DNA of 64,000 nucleotides from Puccinia triticina (Eukaryota; Basidiomycota; Pucciniomycetes; Pucciniales; Pucciniaceae): the NCBI RefSeq assembly GCF_026914185.1, contig NC_070565.1:2232001-2296000 (forward strand). Direction: 5' to 3'. Position 1 is the stretch's first letter; the number at the start of each line of letters is the position of its first letter. Shown here in pieces: positions 3,372 through 51,100 of this stretch. The position numbers and the translations under genes were made by a program. The notes beneath the pieces are model-generated. The model was not told the origin of the DNA and did not search any database. It was given only the letters and a program-made list of their open reading frames with translations.

Positions 3372-4355
3372 ATGGCAGAGACCTCTCAGAAGAATTGCGC
3401 CACCGCTACCGCCTCAGCCCCGCCGCAAGAGAACGGCTTCAAAGAGCTAGAATCAGCCTTGCCGCCTCTGCAGGAGGATTTCCTCAAGCTCCCCGAGGAG
3501 GAACCACTTCCACCAGACACAGGGATCCCCCCGGCGCTATACCAGCTAAGAGAAACGTCCATAGCCCTAGCGTCGAACAGATCCACACCAGTTCCACGGC
3601 CTATAGACAGGGAACATATAGATCTTACGGTGAACCTCCCTCTGACAAGTCAACCGCTCTCCCAGCCTATCAACCCAGAGGGCATGAGACCCACGGCGCC
3701 GCCCAATCTAGCCCTCCTTCTGTACACTCAGAGCCCTCGACGGGAAGCGTCCTCAGGCCCGATGGATCTTATTCCAGAAGAGGAGGAATTATCCAGCCTC
3801 ATCAGCATGTTCAACAAACAATTTGACCTCTTTGTCCGAGCCAGGGAGGCGCAGAACATGTTAACCATGAGGCGCCTCCTCTCCCAAGCTTCTCTAACGC
3901 AAGAGATGATAATAGAATTAGTTGAGAGGAACGACGGTATCCGTCTCTGCCAAGAATGGATACCCAGAGACAAACTACACAACCTGGAAGCCTCTTTAAT
4001 GAATCAGAACAACGGCCCAGGACCGCAGAACTCCACGGCGCAAATAACCCGGCCTCATTCGCAGCTAGCCATAGTGCCGCACGCCAGCCAGCAACCTATT
4101 CTAGCGACGCCAAAACCAGAACCAACGGGTTCTCAACTACGGGCTATAGCGCAGGAGTTCCAGGGTCCTATCCCCTCCAACCAGGCTCAGTTTCAACTAC
4201 AGCCTCAATCCCAGCCGCGCCTAGAGAGCCAGCATTACCAAGGACCTCCCATGCCGCCGCTGCCACCGCCGCAGACGCTCCAAGTGAGGCCGCCACCAGC
4301 TTCTATACCGCGAGAGGTGGTTCAATTATTCCGCCCCAGCCAGCATCCTAAAACT

Positions 4356-4392
4356 TGTTAGATTATGAATCTGGCAACTCAGGATTTGTAGC

Positions 4393-4424
<32 letters not shown>

Positions 4425-4426
4425 AA

Positions 4427-4466
<40 letters not shown>
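4356..4466 (+). repeat. 5' LTR of the miniature element
   Basis: 111 bp with 7-bp imperfect inverted ends TGTTAGA/TCTGACA. It contains the tRNA-like gene and a T-run terminator. It differs from the 3' copy at one position (A at 4384 versus C at 4594). Confidence 0.93.
4382..4451 (+). tRNA. tRNA-like gene inside the 5' LTR
   Basis: It folds as a tRNA. The acceptor is GGATTTG/TGGAGCC with one mismatch. The D-arm is GCTT/AAGC around AGTGGTA. The T-arm is CCGGG/CCTGG around TTCGAGT, with a consensus B box GGTTCGAGTCC (4431-4441) and a good A box TAGCTTAGTGG (4389-4399). TTTT at 4457-4460 would terminate pol III. The anticodon stem pairs only at its three outer positions and the loop reads CTAGAGT, so the isotype is unclear and aminoacylation is doubtful. 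It probably works as an internal pol III promoter or a tRNA mimic. Confidence 0.8.
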
Positions 4467-4480
4467 GATTTACAGTCTTG
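4467..4480 (+). promoter_or_regulatory. candidate internal (half-tRNA) primer-binding site of the miniature element
   Basis: GATTTACAGTCTTG follows the LTR with no gap. Its reverse complement matches the anticodon arm of fungal tRNA-Tyr as I recall it (loop with GTA). The Copia element at 48115-48128 has the same motif with one change in the same position relative to its LTR. Priming by an internal tRNA fragment is known for some Ty1/Copia elements. Confidence 0.65.
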
Positions 4481-4565
4481 AGCTCAAAGAGCCAAGCGTA
4501 CCTGCAGAGGAGAGAGCACACCAGCGGGTCTAGGAGAGCCTTAGAGCATCCAGATTCCGGGAGGA

Positions 4566-4602
4566 TGTTAGATTATGAATCTGGCAACTCAGGCTTTGTA
4601 GC

Positions 4603-4634
<32 letters not shown>

Positions 4635-4636
4635 AA

Positions 4637-4676
<40 letters not shown>
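4566..4676 (+). repeat. 3' LTR of the miniature element
   Basis: Identical to the 5' copy apart from C at 4594, which makes the tRNA acceptor stem fully paired (GGCTTTG with TGGAGCC, including G-U pairs). It is followed by AAACT. Confidence 0.93.
4592..4661 (+). tRNA. tRNA-like gene inside the 3' LTR
   Basis: Same fold, A and B boxes and anticodon arm as the copy at 4382-4451, but the acceptor stem pairs over all seven positions, so this may be the ancestral form. A TTTT terminator lies at 4667-4670. No intron or long variable arm is seen. Confidence 0.82.
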
Positions 4677-4903
4677 AAACTGGCGGCTACAATCCACACC
4701 ATTATCCTCAAATGCCGCAAGGATTCGCAGGCCACAACCCCCCCCATCCTCAAAACAACTGGAGAGGATCAGAGAGGAGCTGGAGACGCCCACAGGACGA
4801 CACTCAGAGAGTCCTACAAATAGGAGAATACCTCATGAGAGCCACACGAGGAGTGAGGAGAGGCTATGGACGAGGGAGAGCCAGGGGGAGAGGCCCTTGT
4901 TAG

Positions 4904-6777: not shown

Positions 6778-9048
6778 GACAAATACTGCCAGTCTTCCCA
6801 CATAGAGGATGCTAGACTCATGAAATGTAAACCTGATAGAGGAAAAGCTCATCTTACTGGAAAAGCAAATCTCACTACTGTCCTCATTGAATCCAGAGAA
6901 CACTCATGTCTTCTTGATAGTGGAGCTTCTTGCTCAATCATCAGTAACAGATTGCTAGATTATGTAATACCAGAATGGGAAAACAAGCTCATGCCAATCA
7001 ACCATGCTAAATTTCACAGCTGTAGTGACCAATTACAGCCAATGGGCATAATAGAAATGGCTTTGGTTTTTCCTCACACCAAAGGTTCCATTAGAATTCT
7101 AGCAGAATTTGTAGTTATAAAAAATGCAAGAATAAACTACCTTATCCTTGGAAATGATTACATGTCTCTTTATGACTTTGATATCACAAACAGCAAAGAG
7201 AGATTCTTTACCATTGGAAATGAGAACAAGAGGAAGAAATTCAGCTTTAAGTCTCATCGTCTGGAGAAAATGAGTCCTTCCAATGAAATTTCTGCTGTAA
7301 AGAAGTCCCATCTTCAACTGCAGCAATTTATTGTAGAAGAACTCTGTGAAGCCAAGTTCAGTGATAAGTTGACTATTGAGCAAAAGGAGAAGCTGTTTGA
7401 AGTCCTCTACAATAACAACCTTGCCTTCTACAACACCAACCAGCCCCTTGGTGCCATTAAAGGTCATGAAGTTCATATCAAGTTGACAACTGAGAGACCT
7501 TATCCTCCTCTCCTCAGAAGACCTCCTTATCCTGCCAGCCCCAAAAGCAGAGAAGCTCTTGAGCAACATATTGAAGAGCTAGTAAACCTGAATGTTCTAA
7601 GGAAAGTTGGTCATAATGAAGTAGTTGAGATCATTACTCCTGTAATCATTGCCTGGCATAATGGAAAATCCAGAATGGTAGGAGACTTCAGAGCTTTGAA
7701 TTCCTATACTGCTTCAGACAGGTATCCCATTCCCAAGATCAGTGAGACTCTGAACAACCTGGCCAAAGCCAAGTATCTGACTAGTATGGATGTACTCAAA
7801 GGTTTTCACCAGAATGTCATTGCAGAAGATTCTTGACATCTACTCAGGATTATTATGCACAAAGGAATCTATGAATACCTGAGAATGCCTTTTGGGATCA
7901 AGAATGCCCCCTCTCATTTCCAGAGAATGATGGACATTGAGTTTAGAAAAGAAATTGATGAGAAGTGGGTCATTATTGACATTGATGATATCATCATTAT
8001 GTCCAACACTTGGGATGAACACCTCAATAGGATAGACAGGATACTGAAAGTTGTCATCAACATGAACATGAAAATCTCCCTGAAGAAGTGTAACTTTGGA
8101 TTTGATCAGATCAAAGCTCTAGGCCATCTTGTCTCTGGCATTGCCATAGGAATAGATCAGAATAAAGTAGCTGCTGTCCTCCAAAAGCCTGTGCCTAGTA
8201 GTAGGAAAGAAATGCAATCCTTTCTTGGTTTTGCTGGTTACTACAGACAACACATTGAGAAGTTTGCAGAGATAGCAAAACCTCTAACTGAACTGACAAG
8301 GATTGATGTCATATATGAGATGACTCATCATAGGATAGTAGCCTACAACTTGTTAAAAGAGAAACTGACAACAGCTCCATTGCTACTGTTTCCTGACTGG
8401 GCCCATCCCTTCACACTATATGTAGATGCTAGCATGACTGGTCTAGGTGCTGCTTTACATCAAGTCCAAGTCATTTATGGAGTAAGAAAAGAAGGGCCCA
8501 TTGTTTTCATATCCAGACAACTGAAGGACAGTGAAACAAGATATGGGGCTAGTCAACTTGAATGCTTATGTCTGGTCTGGGCCCTGGAAAAACTCCATTA
8601 CTACTTGGATGGCAGTGTCTTTCATGTTGTAACAGATTGCACAGCTTTGAGATCACTGTTGAACATGAAGACTCCCAACAGACATATGCTCAGGTGGCAG
8701 ATAGCTATTCAGGAATACAGAGGCAATATAACCATAATCCACAGAGATGGGAATATTCACAAGAATGCTGATGGACTGAGCAGATGGGCTTTGCCAAATG
8801 ATCCTAGTAACCCTGCTTATGACCCAGAAGACAAAGATGATGATAGATTCCCCATCATGGGCATCCATGTCTCTACTTTCAAGAATGAGTTCTTTGAATC
8901 AGTGAGAGAAGGCTAAAAGCAGGATAAGAACACCACTATATTTTCTGAACTTTTGTTGAAAAATGCTAAAGATGCCCAGCTGAAAAATTCTTTACAAGAT
9001 CCTTGGAGAAAGCTATATGATGAAGGAAGATTCTCTATATTTGATGGC
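6778..9048 (+). pseudogene. Gypsy protease, reverse transcriptase and RNase H
   Basis: Same frame as the nucleocapsid, directly after its TAG, so TAG readthrough or a decayed sense codon are both possible. Protease active site DSGAS lies near 6916. The RT fingers (about 7500-7830) end at an in-frame TGA at 7834-7836. The palm continues from 7837 with YEYLRMPFG and the catalytic IDIDD (normally YVDD-like). RNase H has [11 protein letters not shown] near 8420 and a later DGLSRW. A TAA at 8914-8916 interrupts, then the frame runs open to 9048, where the Gag-only element begins. The TGA at 7834 is probably CGA changed by a C to T transition. Confidence 0.88.
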
Positions 9049-43872: not shown

Positions 43873-46800
43873 TCAAGACACAGTTGCAGCCGAGATACAA
43901 CAGAAGAAGGAAAGAAGTTGGTCTGGGATCGGGTAGCCCTCGGGAGAAGAGGATGACCTCTTGAAGGCACCCACCCCTTCTAATTGTGCCCTCCGCGGCT
44001 GGCCGAAAAACCTTCCCCGCAGACGCAACTGCTCCCCTTGATCCCTTTCTACAAGGAGTCTTTGACGAGGCTCTCCCAGCCCTTCGGGGACCCACACAGG
44101 CACAAACAATCATGATTAGGCACTGAGAAAACAACAAACAGAGGCCATTCATGCAAGGTCACTCACCGCGGTACCCAATCCAACTGCACTGATTGTCTTT
44201 GGGGCAATACCGAATGTTCCCCCTATGTTGCGCGTCATAGCTGCATGCCCAATCACCCGATTTGCCTCGACTACCACAGACGCATCATGAGCGTCCCTGA
44301 CCAGACGACAGTTGAGATCGGGATAGTCACCGTATGGATCTTCGAGTCTTTGGAGTTCCTTGAATGGGTTCACAATGAACCACCTCTGCTGAGGTGTTTG
44401 GTCAGATTCAAAGATGTGCTCTATCTGACCAAATCTTTGGTCCTTGCCCCAGTGAAACTCCACCATGCTGTTACCTTCATGATGCTCAACTGCCGTGAAG
44501 GTCTTGCGGTTGATCTGAAAGCTTCGGAGCACTTCCACCGTGGGATCGAGGTTTTGCATAGCTGGAGTCAACTCAAGTTTGGCTCGTGTGCCTTCTTTTC
44601 CGCAGACCGCACGTTTCCACTTTTGCAACGTAGGCTGATCCAGGGTTAATTTGACCTGTGTTTCTGTATCCTCCTCCACACCTTTGGAGGAGTGTGACCC
44701 CTGTGTGTTGCGGCGAAGCAAACACAAATTTGAGTTGATATGCCACTTGTGCAACAACGTCCTGGGAATATCGTCTGCAAAACATCAACAGTACATCAGG
44801 ACCTGTTCCGCGTAGTAACATCGACAGAAATTTACACAAACCAAGGTGATGATTTGTGGTTAACCTCTGTAACATCCCGTTCACCCGCTCCTGCGCCCAC
44901 GCCGCGGTTGATTGGGGAGGGCCAAACCTCCTGATAACATCGGAGAAGTGCTGGGTAAGATGCAGATTTGGTTTGCTGGTTTTACCAGGCCATCCTTTCT
45001 GCAGACAGTTTCGGTAAATCAATATCAAGCTATCGAGCTCTCTGAGACCTCGGACGTGAATGCTCGGAAGAGTCAGGAAATGGGCAATTTTACCCAGTGT
45101 GGAGGTTGATTCTAGCAGGGCCAAGATTTTTTGTTTGCTTTCCGGCATAGCAGCTTCCCCAAGAGACTTTACCCAGAGCGGAATGAGAGCAACAGGATAG
45201 TAGACCTTATATAGGATCAACCACTCGGCTGCCTTCAGTGATCCGTGAGTCGCAGAGCCCAAATTGTGAGGCACTCAATCAATCCACGACGGCAGAACAG
45301 TATGTAGGATGGTCCTTCGGACAACATCTAGTTCCTCCGGCAGAAGCTTGGGGTGATCCTTATCTTCAGCCGCTGCGACTGAGGCGAGAGTCCCCCTTTG
45401 CATACCTGTGACAGTGTAGTCACTGCCGGTCTCTTCATCACTGTTGCTCGGATCCTCATCTGGATTCAATTCGTAAAGTGCCTTCTTCCTTAGGCGCAGC
45501 AAATAGGAATGTGTTGATGCCGAATCAGAGCTTTCCCTGGGCCGGGCTCTGGAGGTGCCAGAGGAATCCAAGTGACTAGGAGGGGGGGCACTCGGACCAG
45601 CCTCATGAGGTGCACTTGAACGGCTCTTTTTGGTAGGTCTTTCGGCTCTTGGACTTGCGGTTCCCGAATGATCTAGCTTCCTCTTCCCTTTTGACTTTCT
45701 CGACACACCAAACCGCTTGTTGAAAGGAGGCTCAGTGTAAGATTTAATGTTCTGCCATGCATCGTCTAGCTCTTGCATGGACTTGAGTTGTGCCCCCGCT
45801 GCGGGCAGAGACAGGAACTGCATGCTGTGGTCTTTCAGATCACCCAGGACCAAAGCATGCATCAGTTCCACCGAGCAGTGTTTAATGGGTCGCCAGTAGG
45901 GCAACTCGTTCAGGACACTCCACCGCGCGCCCTTCTCTTTGGAGAACCGCTTCCTTTCCGTGAAATTTTCCAATTTCTGCCACTCAGAGGCGTTTTGGAG
46001 GTGAACATCATCCGTCCGACGAAGAAACTTGTCGGGATCCGTCTCATCTATTGCTGATTTTGGTAGCAGACAGAAAGAGCAAAACAAGGTCGCCGCGTGA
46101 CTTCCAAATCCGGCAGTCTTACGAAGCGCCGGTAGATCTGCAATGAGCGGGAAAACCGCAACACGGATGGTCCTCCCAACGACAGGAAGACTGGCAGACT
46201 GCAATGCAACCCCCTTCCAGAATTCCTCCAGCTCATCAACAAGAGGTTGCAAAACGTGGTTGAGTTGCTCCTGTCTAGGTTCCTTGGGGCCTGGGATAAT
46301 TCCGAAGAGGAAAATGTTTTCCGGTTTGTATCGATGAGTTGCGGGTAGATTCAGGCAGACTAAAGTGATTGCCCCAACGGTTGTGTGTTTTCCCAGATTT
46401 GAGCTTCCTTCCGGGCCAAACCAATTGAGATATAAACTGAAGACAAGGTTCCCAGAAGTTTGTGTAAATTGTCCAGTGCCATCATCTGAGTTGGGAAATT
46501 CGCGCCAGACATCTTCCATGGGTTGATCTTCCTGCCAGTTGTTTGCCGCCAGACTGAACTCTAACAAGGCCTCAAAAGAAGGTTCCAGGAGGCGTCGCCG
46601 TAACCAAGACTTGAGAGAAACGTAGTTGAATGTTCGAACAGGCGTTTCGTGACTGCTCTGATTGATCTTGTAAAGCGGCTCGTCACAAGTTGGAGTGAGT
46701 TTTTGCGACTCAGCCCACTTGCAATAACCTTGTTTAGGTGACAGGTAACGTTCTGTACATTGTTTACCCTTCCCATGTACGGTTGCCATTGGGTACAATT

Positions 46801-47411
46801 TGAAACAACGTACACAACATACTTGACTGGTCACCTCAGGGTTCAAGCCAAGCCGATGGAATACCGCCTCCTGCGTCTTTGGGATTTGTCGGACGATTGT
46901 GCTCGTGTCAATTTTTTTCCAAAGGGCCGAGCTCCATATCTTGCCGAGCAACACAACGTTTTCACGGGCAGCTTGTAAGAAATCCACCGCCCCTGCCTTG
47001 CTGAGCCTGTTGGAGAATACCGATGACGCCATTTGGATCATCACTTGTTTGCAAAAGACCTCATCCAGATAGACTAGTGTTGGATTTGGGGTGCCTCCTG
47101 AAACAGAAGTCGAGGCCTGCGGAGCACCCTTCAAATGTCCCCAGGTCAGCTGCCCAATCCTCAACGTCGAAGTCTTGGCAATGCTGATTTGGATTTCTAC
47201 TCACTAAATCTTGGTTCGAGGGTCCTGAGAAATCTGCTGGTTGAGCCACAGTGCGCCTGGACAGCTCCAGGGCCACTTGCATCTGGTGCTTGTCAAAAAC
47301 CCTTTTGGACACAACCCTGCCCGCGACAATGACTCCGTCTTCCTCCTTGTGTTGCATGGTCTTGCACCCGGTGGGTTCACAATGACAGACATACTTGGGT
47401 AGGTTCACCAT
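43873..47411 (-). pseudogene. CACTA (EnSpm) Tnp2-type transposase, copy B
   Basis: Exon 1 (47411 to about 47200) has the Cys/His start YVCHCEPTGCK and GRVVSKRVFDKHQ. An intron to about 47100 ends TTTCAG and joins in phase if the donor is GTAGAA. Exon 2 (to 44842) carries the Tnp2 core: FSLYLNWFGPEGSSNLGKH, IFLFGIIPGPKEPRQEQLN, GFGSHAATLFCSFC; then a nuclear, Lys/Ser-rich linker. A TGA at 45277-45275 replaces the arginine that copy A has (WIDRVPHN). A 67-nt intron (44841-44775) leads to exon 3 (to 44167), and a GTGAGT intron leads to a last exon near 44122-43873. Only one clear stop separates it from an intact gene. It would bind and excise CACTA elements. Confidence 0.88.
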
Positions 47412-47426
47412 ACTTTGAATCTATGC

Positions 47427-48114
47427 TGTGAGTATAGAGGTTTGGAGGGTAAGTAAAATATTTTGACTTCAGCTGATTCCTTTGTCCCAAACAGCCAGGT
47501 CATCAGACAAAGAGCCAATACAGACCAAGCACTGCGAGCAATCTTCAAGGTACGTATCACAGGCTGGTCCAGGAGCTGAGGCCTGATAACTGATAGAAGT
47601 TTAAACTCTTCAGTACAAACAGCGCCAAAGCACACTCAAGCCAAAACGGCCCCAGCCTCAGAGAGCAAATAACCCTGGCATTGACTGAAGGTGAGTAGCT
47701 CCTTCTGCAGAGCCCATGCAACATAATAGACGGTGCTGACATGAATGTGTATCAGACTACAGTTCTTCTGCCCTTCTATCCCGACGCACCACCAACAGTG
47801 TAGGCTCGTAGCCCAACAAGGCAAAGCGCAAGAGCGACTTAGCTTGAGTCTGCTCCAGTCTTCCATGACCAGATACTGACACCATGCGCAGCTATCCCTC
47901 AGCTTACCCAACCCAATAGCACACGCTCCGCGTGATCTCAGATACTACTCAGTATCCCCTCAGGAACCTGTTTTAGCTAGAGAAGGACTAAAATCCGCTC
48001 TTAGGTAAAAATCATTTCCCACAATTTATACTTAGCAAATATACAAGATTTGTACTTAGTCTAAACAGAGTCTAACTAGCAATAAAACAACTCTTAGTTG
48101 CTCCATTTCCAACA
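47427..48114 (+). repeat. left LTR of the Copia element
   Basis: Starts TGTGAGTATAG (uncertain) and ends TTTCCAACA. It matches the right LTR from about 47472 on. Its first part is unrelated to the right LTR and probably replaced or deleted. Confidence 0.75.
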
Positions 48115-48128
48115 GATTTACATTCTTG
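48115..48128 (+). promoter_or_regulatory. candidate internal tRNA-Tyr primer-binding site of the Copia element
   Basis: GATTTACATTCTTG lies directly after the LTR and differs at one base from the motif after the LTR of the miniature element. It is complementary to the anticodon arm of fungal tRNA-Tyr apart from that base. Confidence 0.6.
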
Positions 48129-48175
48129 GTTGCTTGAACACAACTACCTCAATAGGCAACTAGGAGCGGATCAAA

Positions 48176-51100
48176 ATGTCTGGCAGATCCTTGAAAAACA
48201 ATCCCGCACCTACTCCTGCACCCGTCGCTGCCGCCAGCCCATCAGATGATAAGGATTACATCAAATATCCTATCCTTGTTGGCAAAAAGTTCCCCATATG
48301 GCAACGCAAGATTTGAAGTTACCTCAAGGTCAAGAAGCTTGTTCAGTGCATTCTTGAACCTATGGAGGAAGGACCGACAGAGGAAGATGAGCTAAAATAC
48401 GCCAAGGCCGCTCATATCATTGGGGGCCATGTATACAATACTATCTACAATCACATCATTACGGAGGAGAACAAATCTGACGCCTACAGTATCTGGACTG
48501 ATCTCCATGAAGAATACACCTTGTCTTCAATCTTGGTGGTGTACCAAGTTTGGTGTAAATGGGAGGATGTGCAGTTTAATGAAAACATTCCAAAGTATAT
48601 CACAGATCTGGAATCCGTCTTGGCCAAATGCAGCGCTATGGGCTTTGACGTACCAGCTAAGATATTCAGCTGCGCAATCATTGCAAGGATCCACAAGAAA
48701 CGACCTGCCTTGATGGAAACCTTAGTCAGCAATACCAAATTGCTTTCACAGCCTTGAAAAATTATTGCTAAACTCAGAGATATTGCTCACCACAATGCTG
48801 TGGCTCTGTCGAAGGCTGCTCAGCTTTACTTGCAAGGTTCATCTACGGCATTGGCCACATCTGCAGGCGGCAAACCCGGCGGCTCTGGTTTTCAAAAACA
48901 AAATCAACCATCTTGTTGTGGCGGCCATAACCCGGATGCCACCAACCACACAGAAGCCACATGCTGGAAGCTTCACCCTGACCAGTACCGCAAGACGCGC
49001 GCCGCGGGTACCGGGCTTGTTACTACTGTAACCACACTGCAAGCCACAAGTGAACCCATCATAAGGCCATGCTTTGGTTATCTTACTGGTCCTAAAAATT
49101 CCAACAGAAGCCCTCATATGGTCCTAGATTTGGGAGCCAGCCACCACATGCTGAATTCCCTTGACCATTTTGGCCAAACCACGCCAGTGTCAATCAGCAT
49201 TGCAACTGGTAACCGTGGAGACCAGAAAGAACTCCTTGCCACAGCCAAAGGCGACACCACTCTCAGGTTCACTAACGGTGCCACTCTAATTCTCAAAGAC
49301 GCACTGTTTGTGCCCAACATCACAAGAAATCTTGTCTTGTTTGTCCAACTTCTCGACCAATCCGCTACTGTCTCCAACACGGCCACAGGATTTGAAGTAA
49401 AAATTGACGACTTAAGCGCGATTTCTGTGGACACTTCCAACCACATATTTGAGATCATCGGTATTCGAGACACTCAAGATGTTCCTAAAGCCAACCTACC
49501 GGAAACCAAGCAAATTACAACGGTTAACAATATGGTTAAGTGGCATAATCGGCTCGGACATGCAAGTTGCAAGAGAATCCAAGCCATGACCAATCTTCCC
49601 AATCATCAAGGTCCTGTGCTTGCTTGTGACGCCTGCATGAAAGGAAAAATCAAGCGAGTGCCGTTTGCCAGTCACTTCAAGCCTGCTACAAAGCCGCTTG
49701 AAATCGTGCACGCTGATTTGGTCGGTCCAAATTCAATTAGTCTAGCCACCAATGCCGGGGCTCAATACTTCCTTACCCTGGTCAATCAATTTACCAGATA
49801 CATTCACACTCAAATCATGAAGCACAAGAGTGACGCAAAGGCTGCAATTGTTGACTTCAAAGTCTTCTTTGAGAAGCAAACGGGATGCGAGGTCAGGAAG
49901 CTAATTAGCAATGGTGGTGGCAAATTCGTCAACAAGTCACTCCACGAAATCTTGAAGGAAGAAGGCATCCAGCATACGGTCTCACCCCCGTACACTCCCC
50001 AGCACAATGGATTTGGTGAAAGAGTGAATCGCACAATCATCAAGACGACGCGAACCCAGATGATGCAGACCAATCTCGCACCTGAGTGGTGGGCTGAGGC
50101 GGTTTGAATGGTCACCGCAATCTCCAACTGTCTACCTTCACTGTCTAAAACCAACGCTTCTCTGATGGAACTCATGTTTAAAATCAAACCCAACATGAGT
50201 TTCTTTAGGCCTTTTGGTTTTTGAGCGTGGATAGTCAAACCAAAACAGTGCCAACAATCAAAATTTGCGGCTATCTCATGGGACGGCATCATGCTGGGCT
50301 ATGATAACGACTTCTTGGCTTATTGGCTATATCAACTTGAAGACAAGGCCTTTGTGACTACAAAGCATGCACACTTTGAAGAAGCTGACTTCCCGGTCTG
50401 TGGCGCCGTAAACCAAAGTCTGAATCACTATGGGCTAACCAAACTCCCCTCCTTCGCTCATGCTGAGCCTCTCCCCTTCTCAGAAGAAGAGGATGTAGAA
50501 GATCGCCTGCGTGACCAGCTACAAGAAGAGCAGGAAATTTGTGAAATCCAGGAGCTGATGGGAAACAATCAACTTGAGTCGACTCCACCGCCTGAAGATC
50601 AAGACTTGTCTGAAGATATGGCTGATCCAAGCATGCTGAATCACCTGGGGCAGACTTGCACCCTCAAAGTCATTGGCCCGGGTCAGCCCACACTAATCTC
50701 AAGTGATATTGATCCAAGTAATATCAGGACATACAAGCGCAGACAAGCTTACCTCACAAAGACCAAATCAATGGAGCCATCTAACCACAACCAGGCAATG
50801 AAAGCCAATGATAGCCTCCAGTGGAAGGAGGCCAAATTGAAAGAGGTAATGAACATGAGAAACCACAAAGCCTGGATTGAGCGACAAAGGCGCAAAACCA
50901 ATCGACCCATACCAGCAACTTAGGCTTTCCGCAAAAAGCTTGGTCCTGACAACCAAGTTATCAAATACAAGGCGCAAATCTGTGTGCAGGGCTTTCAACA
51001 ACAGCATGGGCTCAATTTCGGCAAAACATATGCGCCTACTGGAAGTCCAGGATCATTCAGGCTCCTTATCTTGTTTGCAGTGGACAATGATTACAAGATC

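What the first reader, a model, noticed from the sequence alone, without database searches (positions are those of the whole stretch)
4356..4676. A 321-bp miniature LTR element with a tRNA gene in each LTR
Seen: 111-bp LTRs one base apart, TG...CA ends, AAACT duplication, purine tract, and in each LTR a tRNA fold with A box, consensus B box and a TTTT terminator. Removing it restores the host ORF1 frame. Known: plant Cassandra elements carry 5S rRNA promoters in their LTRs. Inference: this is the tRNA counterpart, transcribed by pol III or exploiting tRNA mimicry, in a fungus. I do not know of a described rust family like it.
Basis: partly seen in the sequence, partly recalled or inferred. Interest (0 to 1): 0.9.

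Follow-up and report, generated by a model that had tools for sequence, protein, structure and literature searches.

The report
Tiny tRNA-bearing jumping element (Helenus)
A 321-base mobile element with a tRNA-like gene in each end repeat belongs to an already described group called Helenus, and some copies in the same genome are fused to larger Copia elements, which points to Copia as the machinery that copies it.

Summary
In detail: 111-bp LTRs with one mismatch, 99-bp interior, TG..CA ends, AAACT duplication, and a tRNA match in each LTR (Rfam 42.1 and 36.8 bits). At least 53 matches lie in the genome; 23 of 35 inspected rows have perfect 5-bp duplications, no two alike. Seventeen natural empty sites confirm the insertion.

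The novelty claim does not hold. Kojima 2024 (PMC10886601) named such elements Helenus, reported 113 families in rust fungi, and described the anticodon-loop primer site, 5-bp duplications and Copia dependence. Here the primer site matches the genome's own tRNA-Tyr in spliced form.

What I add: natural Helenus/Copia recombinants joined at the shared primer site, in both directions. Of 38 Helenus-LTR-to-primer-site joins 2 lead into Copia; of 40 Helenus interiors 2 follow a Copia-type LTR end. Two of these four chimeras have matching 5-bp duplications at their outer ends, so they most likely formed before integration. One carries a Copia 3' LTR whose end is replaced by 37 nt of Helenus LTR. This is strong genomic evidence that Copia reverse transcription handles Helenus. 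RNA polymerase III transcription remains untested.

The parts
4351..4355 (.). left target-site duplication AAACT
   Evidence: empty sites
4356..4466 (+). 5' LTR, 111 bp, TG..CA
4382..4452 (+). tRNA-like sequence of the 5' LTR (ARAGORN: Ser-AGA; acceptor stem has one mismatch)
4389..4399 (+). A box (LTR positions 34-44)
   Evidence: motif name recalled
4431..4441 (+). B box GGTTCGAGTCC (LTR positions 76-86)
   Evidence: motif name recalled
4453..4460 (+). TTTCTTTT, putative weak pol III terminator; TTTCTTTTC kept in 50 of 64 near-full LTRs
4467..4485 (+). primer binding site: first 12 nt exactly complementary to spliced tRNA-Tyr(GUA), 17 of 19 identical by hand count
4486..4558 (+). rest of the 99-bp interior
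4559..4565 (+). purine run GGGAGGA, putative polypurine tract
   Evidence: by inspection
4566..4676 (+). 3' LTR, 111 bp
4592..4662 (+). tRNA-like sequence of the 3' LTR (acceptor stem pairs throughout, G-U included)
4599..4609 (+). A box, 3' LTR
4641..4651 (+). B box, 3' LTR
4663..4670 (+). TTTCTTTT, 3' LTR
4677..4681 (.). right target-site duplication AAACT
3372..4355 (+). host ORF piece interrupted by the element; a reverse transcriptase/RNase H piece lies at 7855-8913, probably of the same retroelement

Best explanation
The element is a Helenus-type TRIM: a non-coding LTR retrotransposon whose LTR is largely a degenerate tRNA gene. Inferred: the internal A and B boxes start an RNA polymerase III transcript within the 5' LTR; the short T4 run in the 5' LTR is partly read through and the same run in the 3' LTR ends the transcript, so the tRNA-like part is the terminal repeat R of the RNA. 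Supported by sequence: the RNA is primed by the 3' end of a tRNA-Tyr half, cut in the anticodon arm, as Copia elements of the same genome appear to be. Shown by recombinants: Helenus and Copia sequences are joined at the shared primer site, and in one case near the end of Copia R, in elements that integrated with 5-bp duplications. The best reading is that Copia proteins reverse transcribe and integrate Helenus, and that more than one Copia family can do so.
For: Copies: 53 matches, 72 LTR matches, 42 interior matches, all lower bounds. TSDs: 17 of 26 rows and 6 of 9 perfect, all 23 different; 13 of the 48 loci fetched were not put to this test because they are fragmentary or lack an outer end. 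LTR/LTR difference 0 to 9.9%, median 2.7%, in 15 chosen two-LTR copies. Primer site: 12 nt exact match across the splice junction in the 4 tRNA-Tyr gene copies compared (5 genes found). 117 primer-site-like places against 3 for the reversed control. Of 20 such loci fetched, 11 share Copia coding sequence with L111 (matches over 150 nt), 7 have paired LTRs, and 13 have CTTAG or a variant starting at -22. Chimera 1 (L111, C16:4457992-4463331): AATGT, Helenus LTR-interior-LTR, primer site, Copia gag, 1128-aa pol frame with rve and RVT_2, Copia LTR whose native last 14 nt are replaced by 37 nt of Helenus LTR, AATGT. Chimera 2 (L036, C5:1612221-1613239): GAGGA, 799-bp Copia LTR, Helenus interior, Helenus LTR, GAGGA; the LTR's ends are confirmed by two solo copies with their own TSDs CAAAT and GATTT, and both flanks are open in the phase that one insertion would give. 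Chimera 3 (L044/L109, C10): Helenus LTR directly before the primer site and gag of a different Copia family. Chimera 4 (L042, C11): Copia-type LTR end before a Helenus interior.
Against: No expression data: pol III transcription is inference. Among 64 LTR copies the A box varies less than average but the B box varies more (mean minority frequency 0.0099 and 0.0837; boxes against rest, permutation p for lower = 0.92), mostly at CpG positions, so copies of this one family give no support for selection on the promoter. The T4 run lies at the weak end but not outside other tRNA genes (5 of 22 ARAGORN records with an intron have 4 or fewer). The cDNA jump in chimera 1 lies at LTR position 75, not at the start site that a pol III model predicts. 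Chimeras 3 and 4 have no matching TSD. Chimera 1 needs a further step to explain its extra Helenus LTR-interior unit, and its first Helenus LTR lacks the bases around the LTR/primer-site border. GAGGA occurs four times in the 578 bases upstream of chimera 2; its place rests on the LTR start seen in the two solo copies.
Confidence: 0.8

Rival explanations
1. The chimeras arose after integration, by ectopic recombination or gene conversion between a Helenus copy and a Copia copy at the shared primer site, or by misassembly, and say nothing about co-packaging.
For: The shared primer site gives about 12 nt of identity at the joins; chimera 3 has lost its 3' part and chimera 4 has no TSD in the sequence read.
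Against: A crossover between two loci would join the left flank of one to the right flank of the other; both chimeras with both outer ends resolved show the expected 5-bp TSD, about 1 in 1024 each by chance. The hybrid LTR of chimera 1 changes template near the end of Copia R, not at a long homologous stretch.
Confidence: 0.13
2. The element is transcribed by RNA polymerase II and the tRNA-like part is a passenger or serves RNA structure or packaging.
For: No transcript data; the B box is not specially conserved among copies; the element lacks a strong terminator.
Against: The 3' LTR has no AATAAA, ATTAAA or TATAA, while 13 of 20 primer-site loci carry an AATAAA-like signal, loosely defined, between -29 and -33; both boxes and the T run are present; Kojima 2024 reports box conservation across families.
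Confidence: 0.2
3. The element mainly spreads working tRNA genes.
For: ARAGORN and Rfam call it a tRNA.
Against: By inspection an anticodon stem of 3 pairs with a long loop; ARAGORN isotype Ser without the long variable arm of Ser tRNAs (recalled); fold no better than shuffles. Kojima 2024 reached the same view for most families.
Confidence: 0.03

Closest known systems
Helenus (Kojima 2024, PMC10886601), fungal families
   Same: Length 321 bp within the reported 311-1263 bp; tRNA-derived LTR with both boxes; 5-bp TSD; primer site complementary to the tRNA-Tyr anticodon arm; solo LTRs; many families in rusts; Copia dependence proposed from primer-site similarity and one shared interior.
   Different: Whether this family is one of the 113 catalogued could not be tested (no family sequences were at hand). 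The paper infers Copia from similarity; here there are physical Helenus/Copia recombinants. Its text has no word beginning 'chimeric' (0 occurrences).
Cassandra (plants)
   Same: Small-RNA gene inside the LTR; tandem LTR-interior arrays (PMC7215508, passages).
   Different: 5S rRNA instead of tRNA; that paper calls Cassandra's autonomous partners unknown.
Tandemly arrayed TRIMs of plants (PMC4717578, passages)
   Same: Three-LTR, two-interior arrays; here L015 and L019 with intact TSDs.
   Different: Plant families; no tRNA mentioned in the passages seen.
Ty5 and Drosophila copia priming
   Same: Primer is a tRNA half cut in the anticodon arm (stated in PMC10886601).
   Different: tRNA-Tyr here; initiator Met there (recalled).
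Mosaic autonomous/non-autonomous LTR retrotransposons (wheat Quinta lineages, PMC11302176, passages)
   Same: Sequence exchange ascribed to template switching.
   Different: There related lineages recombined; here the partners share little beyond the primer site as far as seen.

Membership tests
Helenus | LTR retrotransposon about 1 kb or less without coding capacity | tested here: met
   321 bp; the longest ORF overlapping it other than the host's is 87 aa and runs outside it
Helenus | tRNA-derived sequence in both LTRs | tested here: met
Helenus | 5-bp TSDs (fungal families) | tested here: met
   23 of 35 rows perfect; the 12 misses are 7 truncated or fragmentary copies, 2 chimeras, 1 truncated solo LTR, 1 full copy without TSD, 1 with 4 of 5 bases
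Helenus | primer site complementary to the anticodon arm of tRNA-Tyr, Ile, Asp or iMet, spliced form | tested here: met
   12 nt exact, 17 of 19 identical to spliced tRNA-Tyr of this genome
Helenus | polypurine tract before the 3' LTR | tested here: inconclusive
   GGGAGGA present, short; by inspection
Helenus | multicopy with solo LTRs | tested here: met
Helenus | sequence match to a catalogued family | not testable with these tools
   Repbase and the paper's supplement not available
Helenus | RNA polymerase III transcription | not testable with these tools
   also not shown in the paper
Cassandra | 5S rRNA-derived LTR | tested here: not met
   only tRNA matched in Rfam at E 0.01
tRNA-derived SINE | no LTRs, target-primed integration | tested here: not met
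   two LTRs, TG..CA, primer site, 5-bp TSDs

The most novel reading that the evidence does not exclude
TSD-flanked Helenus/Copia recombinants show that RNA of a tRNA-promoter TRIM is co-packaged and reverse transcribed with Copia RNA, and that the only sequence the partners need to share is the half-tRNA-Tyr primer site. One tRNA-promoter TRIM can then use several Copia families and swap whole LTRs with them, so that a Copia element can receive a pol III-type LTR and a Helenus a pol II-type LTR.
Probability: 0.7. Interest if true: 0.62.

Novelty: new member of a known kind. Interest (0 to 1): 0.48.

Why it matters
Which autonomous elements move the small-RNA-gene TRIMs (Cassandra, Helenus, Ajax) is open: Cassandra's partners are called unknown, and fungal Helenus was tied to Copia by primer-site and TSD similarity and one shared interior. 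Natural recombinants with intact duplications answer this from DNA alone, and the same search (a TRIM LTR joined to a foreign interior at the primer site) can be run in any long-read genome. They also suggest how LTR promoters can be exchanged between unrelated families.

Tried and rejected
Selection on the promoter boxes among copies: not supported. Thermodynamic test of the tRNA fold: not significant. Empty-site resumption for the L044 chimera: its Copia is cut off near L109r 3100, where repeats of the target family resume, so no TSD can be read. TSD for the L042 chimera: GTTTA was not found upstream in the roughly 1 kb read. Reading L111 as a Copia nested in a Helenus LTR: rejected, because its Copia lacks a 5' LTR and the last 14 nt of its 3' LTR. 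Pfam at E 0.001 gave nothing for four host ORF pieces and RT with RNase H for the fifth. Literature: searches; the only paper found with the words Helenus, retrotransposon and TRIM was PMC10886601 (parts 1-4 of 6 and the figure section read, the rest not). PMC11302176, PMC10853983, PMC7215508 and PMC4717578 were seen as found passages only; other papers only as listings. I found no report of Helenus/Copia chimeras in these searches, which cover open-licence papers only.

Full report
What is there. The element at 4356-4676 is as described: 111-bp LTRs with one mismatch, a 99-bp interior, TG..CA ends and AAACT on both sides. Both LTRs match the tRNA model of Rfam over its full length (36.8 and 42.1 bits, cut-off 29). 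It sits in an ORF upstream of a reverse transcriptase/RNase H piece of the type seen in Ty3/gypsy elements (recalled). Seventeen other copies of that host stretch lack the element; their left and right matches overlap by 5 bp in 15 and by 4 bp in 2 (40 of 201 candidates scored).

A family. The genome (122.8 Mb in 18 contigs, unnamed) holds at least 53 matches to the element (40 of 69 candidates scored), 72 to its LTR (40 of 69) and 42 to its interior (40 of 43). I fetched 48 family loci. Perfect 5-bp duplications were seen in 17 of 26 rows and 6 of 9 rows, all 23 different. The misses are five truncated copies, one full copy (L020), one with 4 of 5 bases (L027) and two chimeras (L028, L044); a truncated LTR and two interior fragments. 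The other 13 loci (L026, L033-L043, L120) were not in these rows, being fragmentary or lacking an outer end; L036 among them is chimera 2 below. Eight of the 23 are solo LTRs. Two are tandem LTR-interior-LTR-interior-LTR forms (L015, L019). LTR pairs differ by 0 to 9.9%, median 2.7%, in 15 two-LTR copies, so the family has been active over some time, including recently.

Primer. The interior begins GATTTACAGTCTTGAG, the complement of the anticodon arm of tRNA-Tyr. Five tRNA-Tyr genes with introns were found (a sixth match of that pattern is not one). In the four gene copies compared, the first 12 nt match exactly across the splice junction, taking the intron to start after TGTAA; by hand count 17 of 19 are identical. 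So the spliced tRNA is the likely primer. The same motif with up to one mismatch occurs 117 times against 3 for the reversed control. Of 20 such loci outside the family's simple copies, 11 share Copia coding sequence with L111, 7 have paired LTRs, 13 have CTTAG or a variant starting 22 bases before the primer site, and 13 an AATAAA-like signal between -29 and -33; L050, L067 and L068 show neither signal, and L068 is an old relative of the element itself.

Known already. Kojima 2024 (PMC10886601; [quoted passage not shown] The present element meets the features that I could test, except that the polypurine tract is only a short run. Whether it is one of the catalogued families could not be checked.

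New here: recombinants. I classified the joins in all 48 loci. Of 79 Helenus LTR 3' ends, 38 are followed by a primer site: 36 lead into a Helenus interior and 2 into a Copia; the other 41 run into other sequence. Of 40 Helenus interiors with their start, 37 follow a Helenus LTR, 2 follow a Copia-type LTR end, and 1 (L037) is unclear. Chimera 1 (L111): AATGT, then Helenus LTR-interior-LTR (the first LTR and interior have lost the bases around their border), then the primer site, gag and a 1128-aa pol frame of a Copia, then a Copia LTR, then AATGT. Two other LTR copies of that Copia end ..TTAGTTG TGTGATTTCTTTCA (L122, L124; a third, L123, is broken earlier); in the chimera the last 14 bases are replaced by the last 37 of a Helenus LTR. 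That is what is expected if first-strand cDNA begun on Helenus RNA jumped to the 3' end of Copia RNA. Chimera 2 (L036): GAGGA, a 799-bp Copia LTR, Helenus primer site and interior, Helenus LTR, GAGGA. Two solo copies of the Copia LTR with their own duplications confirm its ends, and the two flanks, read apart, are open in the phase that a single insertion gives (33 and 67 codons). That fits transfer of Copia plus-strand strong-stop DNA to a Helenus cDNA at the shared primer site. Chimera 3 (L044) is the reverse join with another Copia family but has lost its 3' end. Chimera 4 (L042) is more diverged and shows no duplication in the sequence read. Matching duplications at the outer ends of chimeras 1 and 2 place the recombination before integration. 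The order of strand transfers, and the origin of the extra Helenus unit in chimera 1, are inferred.

Transcription. The LTR has both pol III boxes and TTTCTTTT and lacks AATAAA, ATTAAA and TATAA. TTTCTTTTC is unchanged in 50 of 64 near-full LTRs (of 85 LTR matches). In 22 ARAGORN records with an intron, out of 40 tRNA loci fetched from 57 listed matches, the longest T run within 30 nt has a median of 5; 5 of 22 have 4 or fewer. A T4 run would be a leaky terminator, which the model needs, because the 5' copy must be passed. Against it: the B box is not conserved more than the rest in this family, and no RNA data were available.

Verdict. The element is real and of an already described kind. Its surroundings in the genome give the added value: natural recombinants that tie a tRNA-promoter TRIM to Copia reverse transcription.

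Noticed in passing
window 47600-50923, primer site at 48115-48129: A degraded Copia (integrase and Pol_BBD domains) with a tRNA-Tyr-type primer site GATTTACATTCTTGG and CTTAG upstream lies in the same window.
   Followed up: partly
L078, L108 (C6:4463555, C10:3311637): tRNA-like sequences followed by TTTT..TTTCTGACA look like LTRs of at least one other Helenus family, called tRNA-Ser-TGA by ARAGORN.
   Followed up: no
L073-L076, L102: Near-identical tRNA-Asp sequences with differing flanks; seven further hits share the score of the first four. Whether gene copies or a mobile unit is not clear.
   Followed up: no
LTR positions 80-81 (window 4435-4436, 4645-4646): The CpG of the B box varies in a third to a half of copies, which suggests cytosine methylation and deamination of these elements.
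   Followed up: no
window 45275-47161, minus strand: ORF with a Transposase_21 (tnp2) domain.
   Followed up: no
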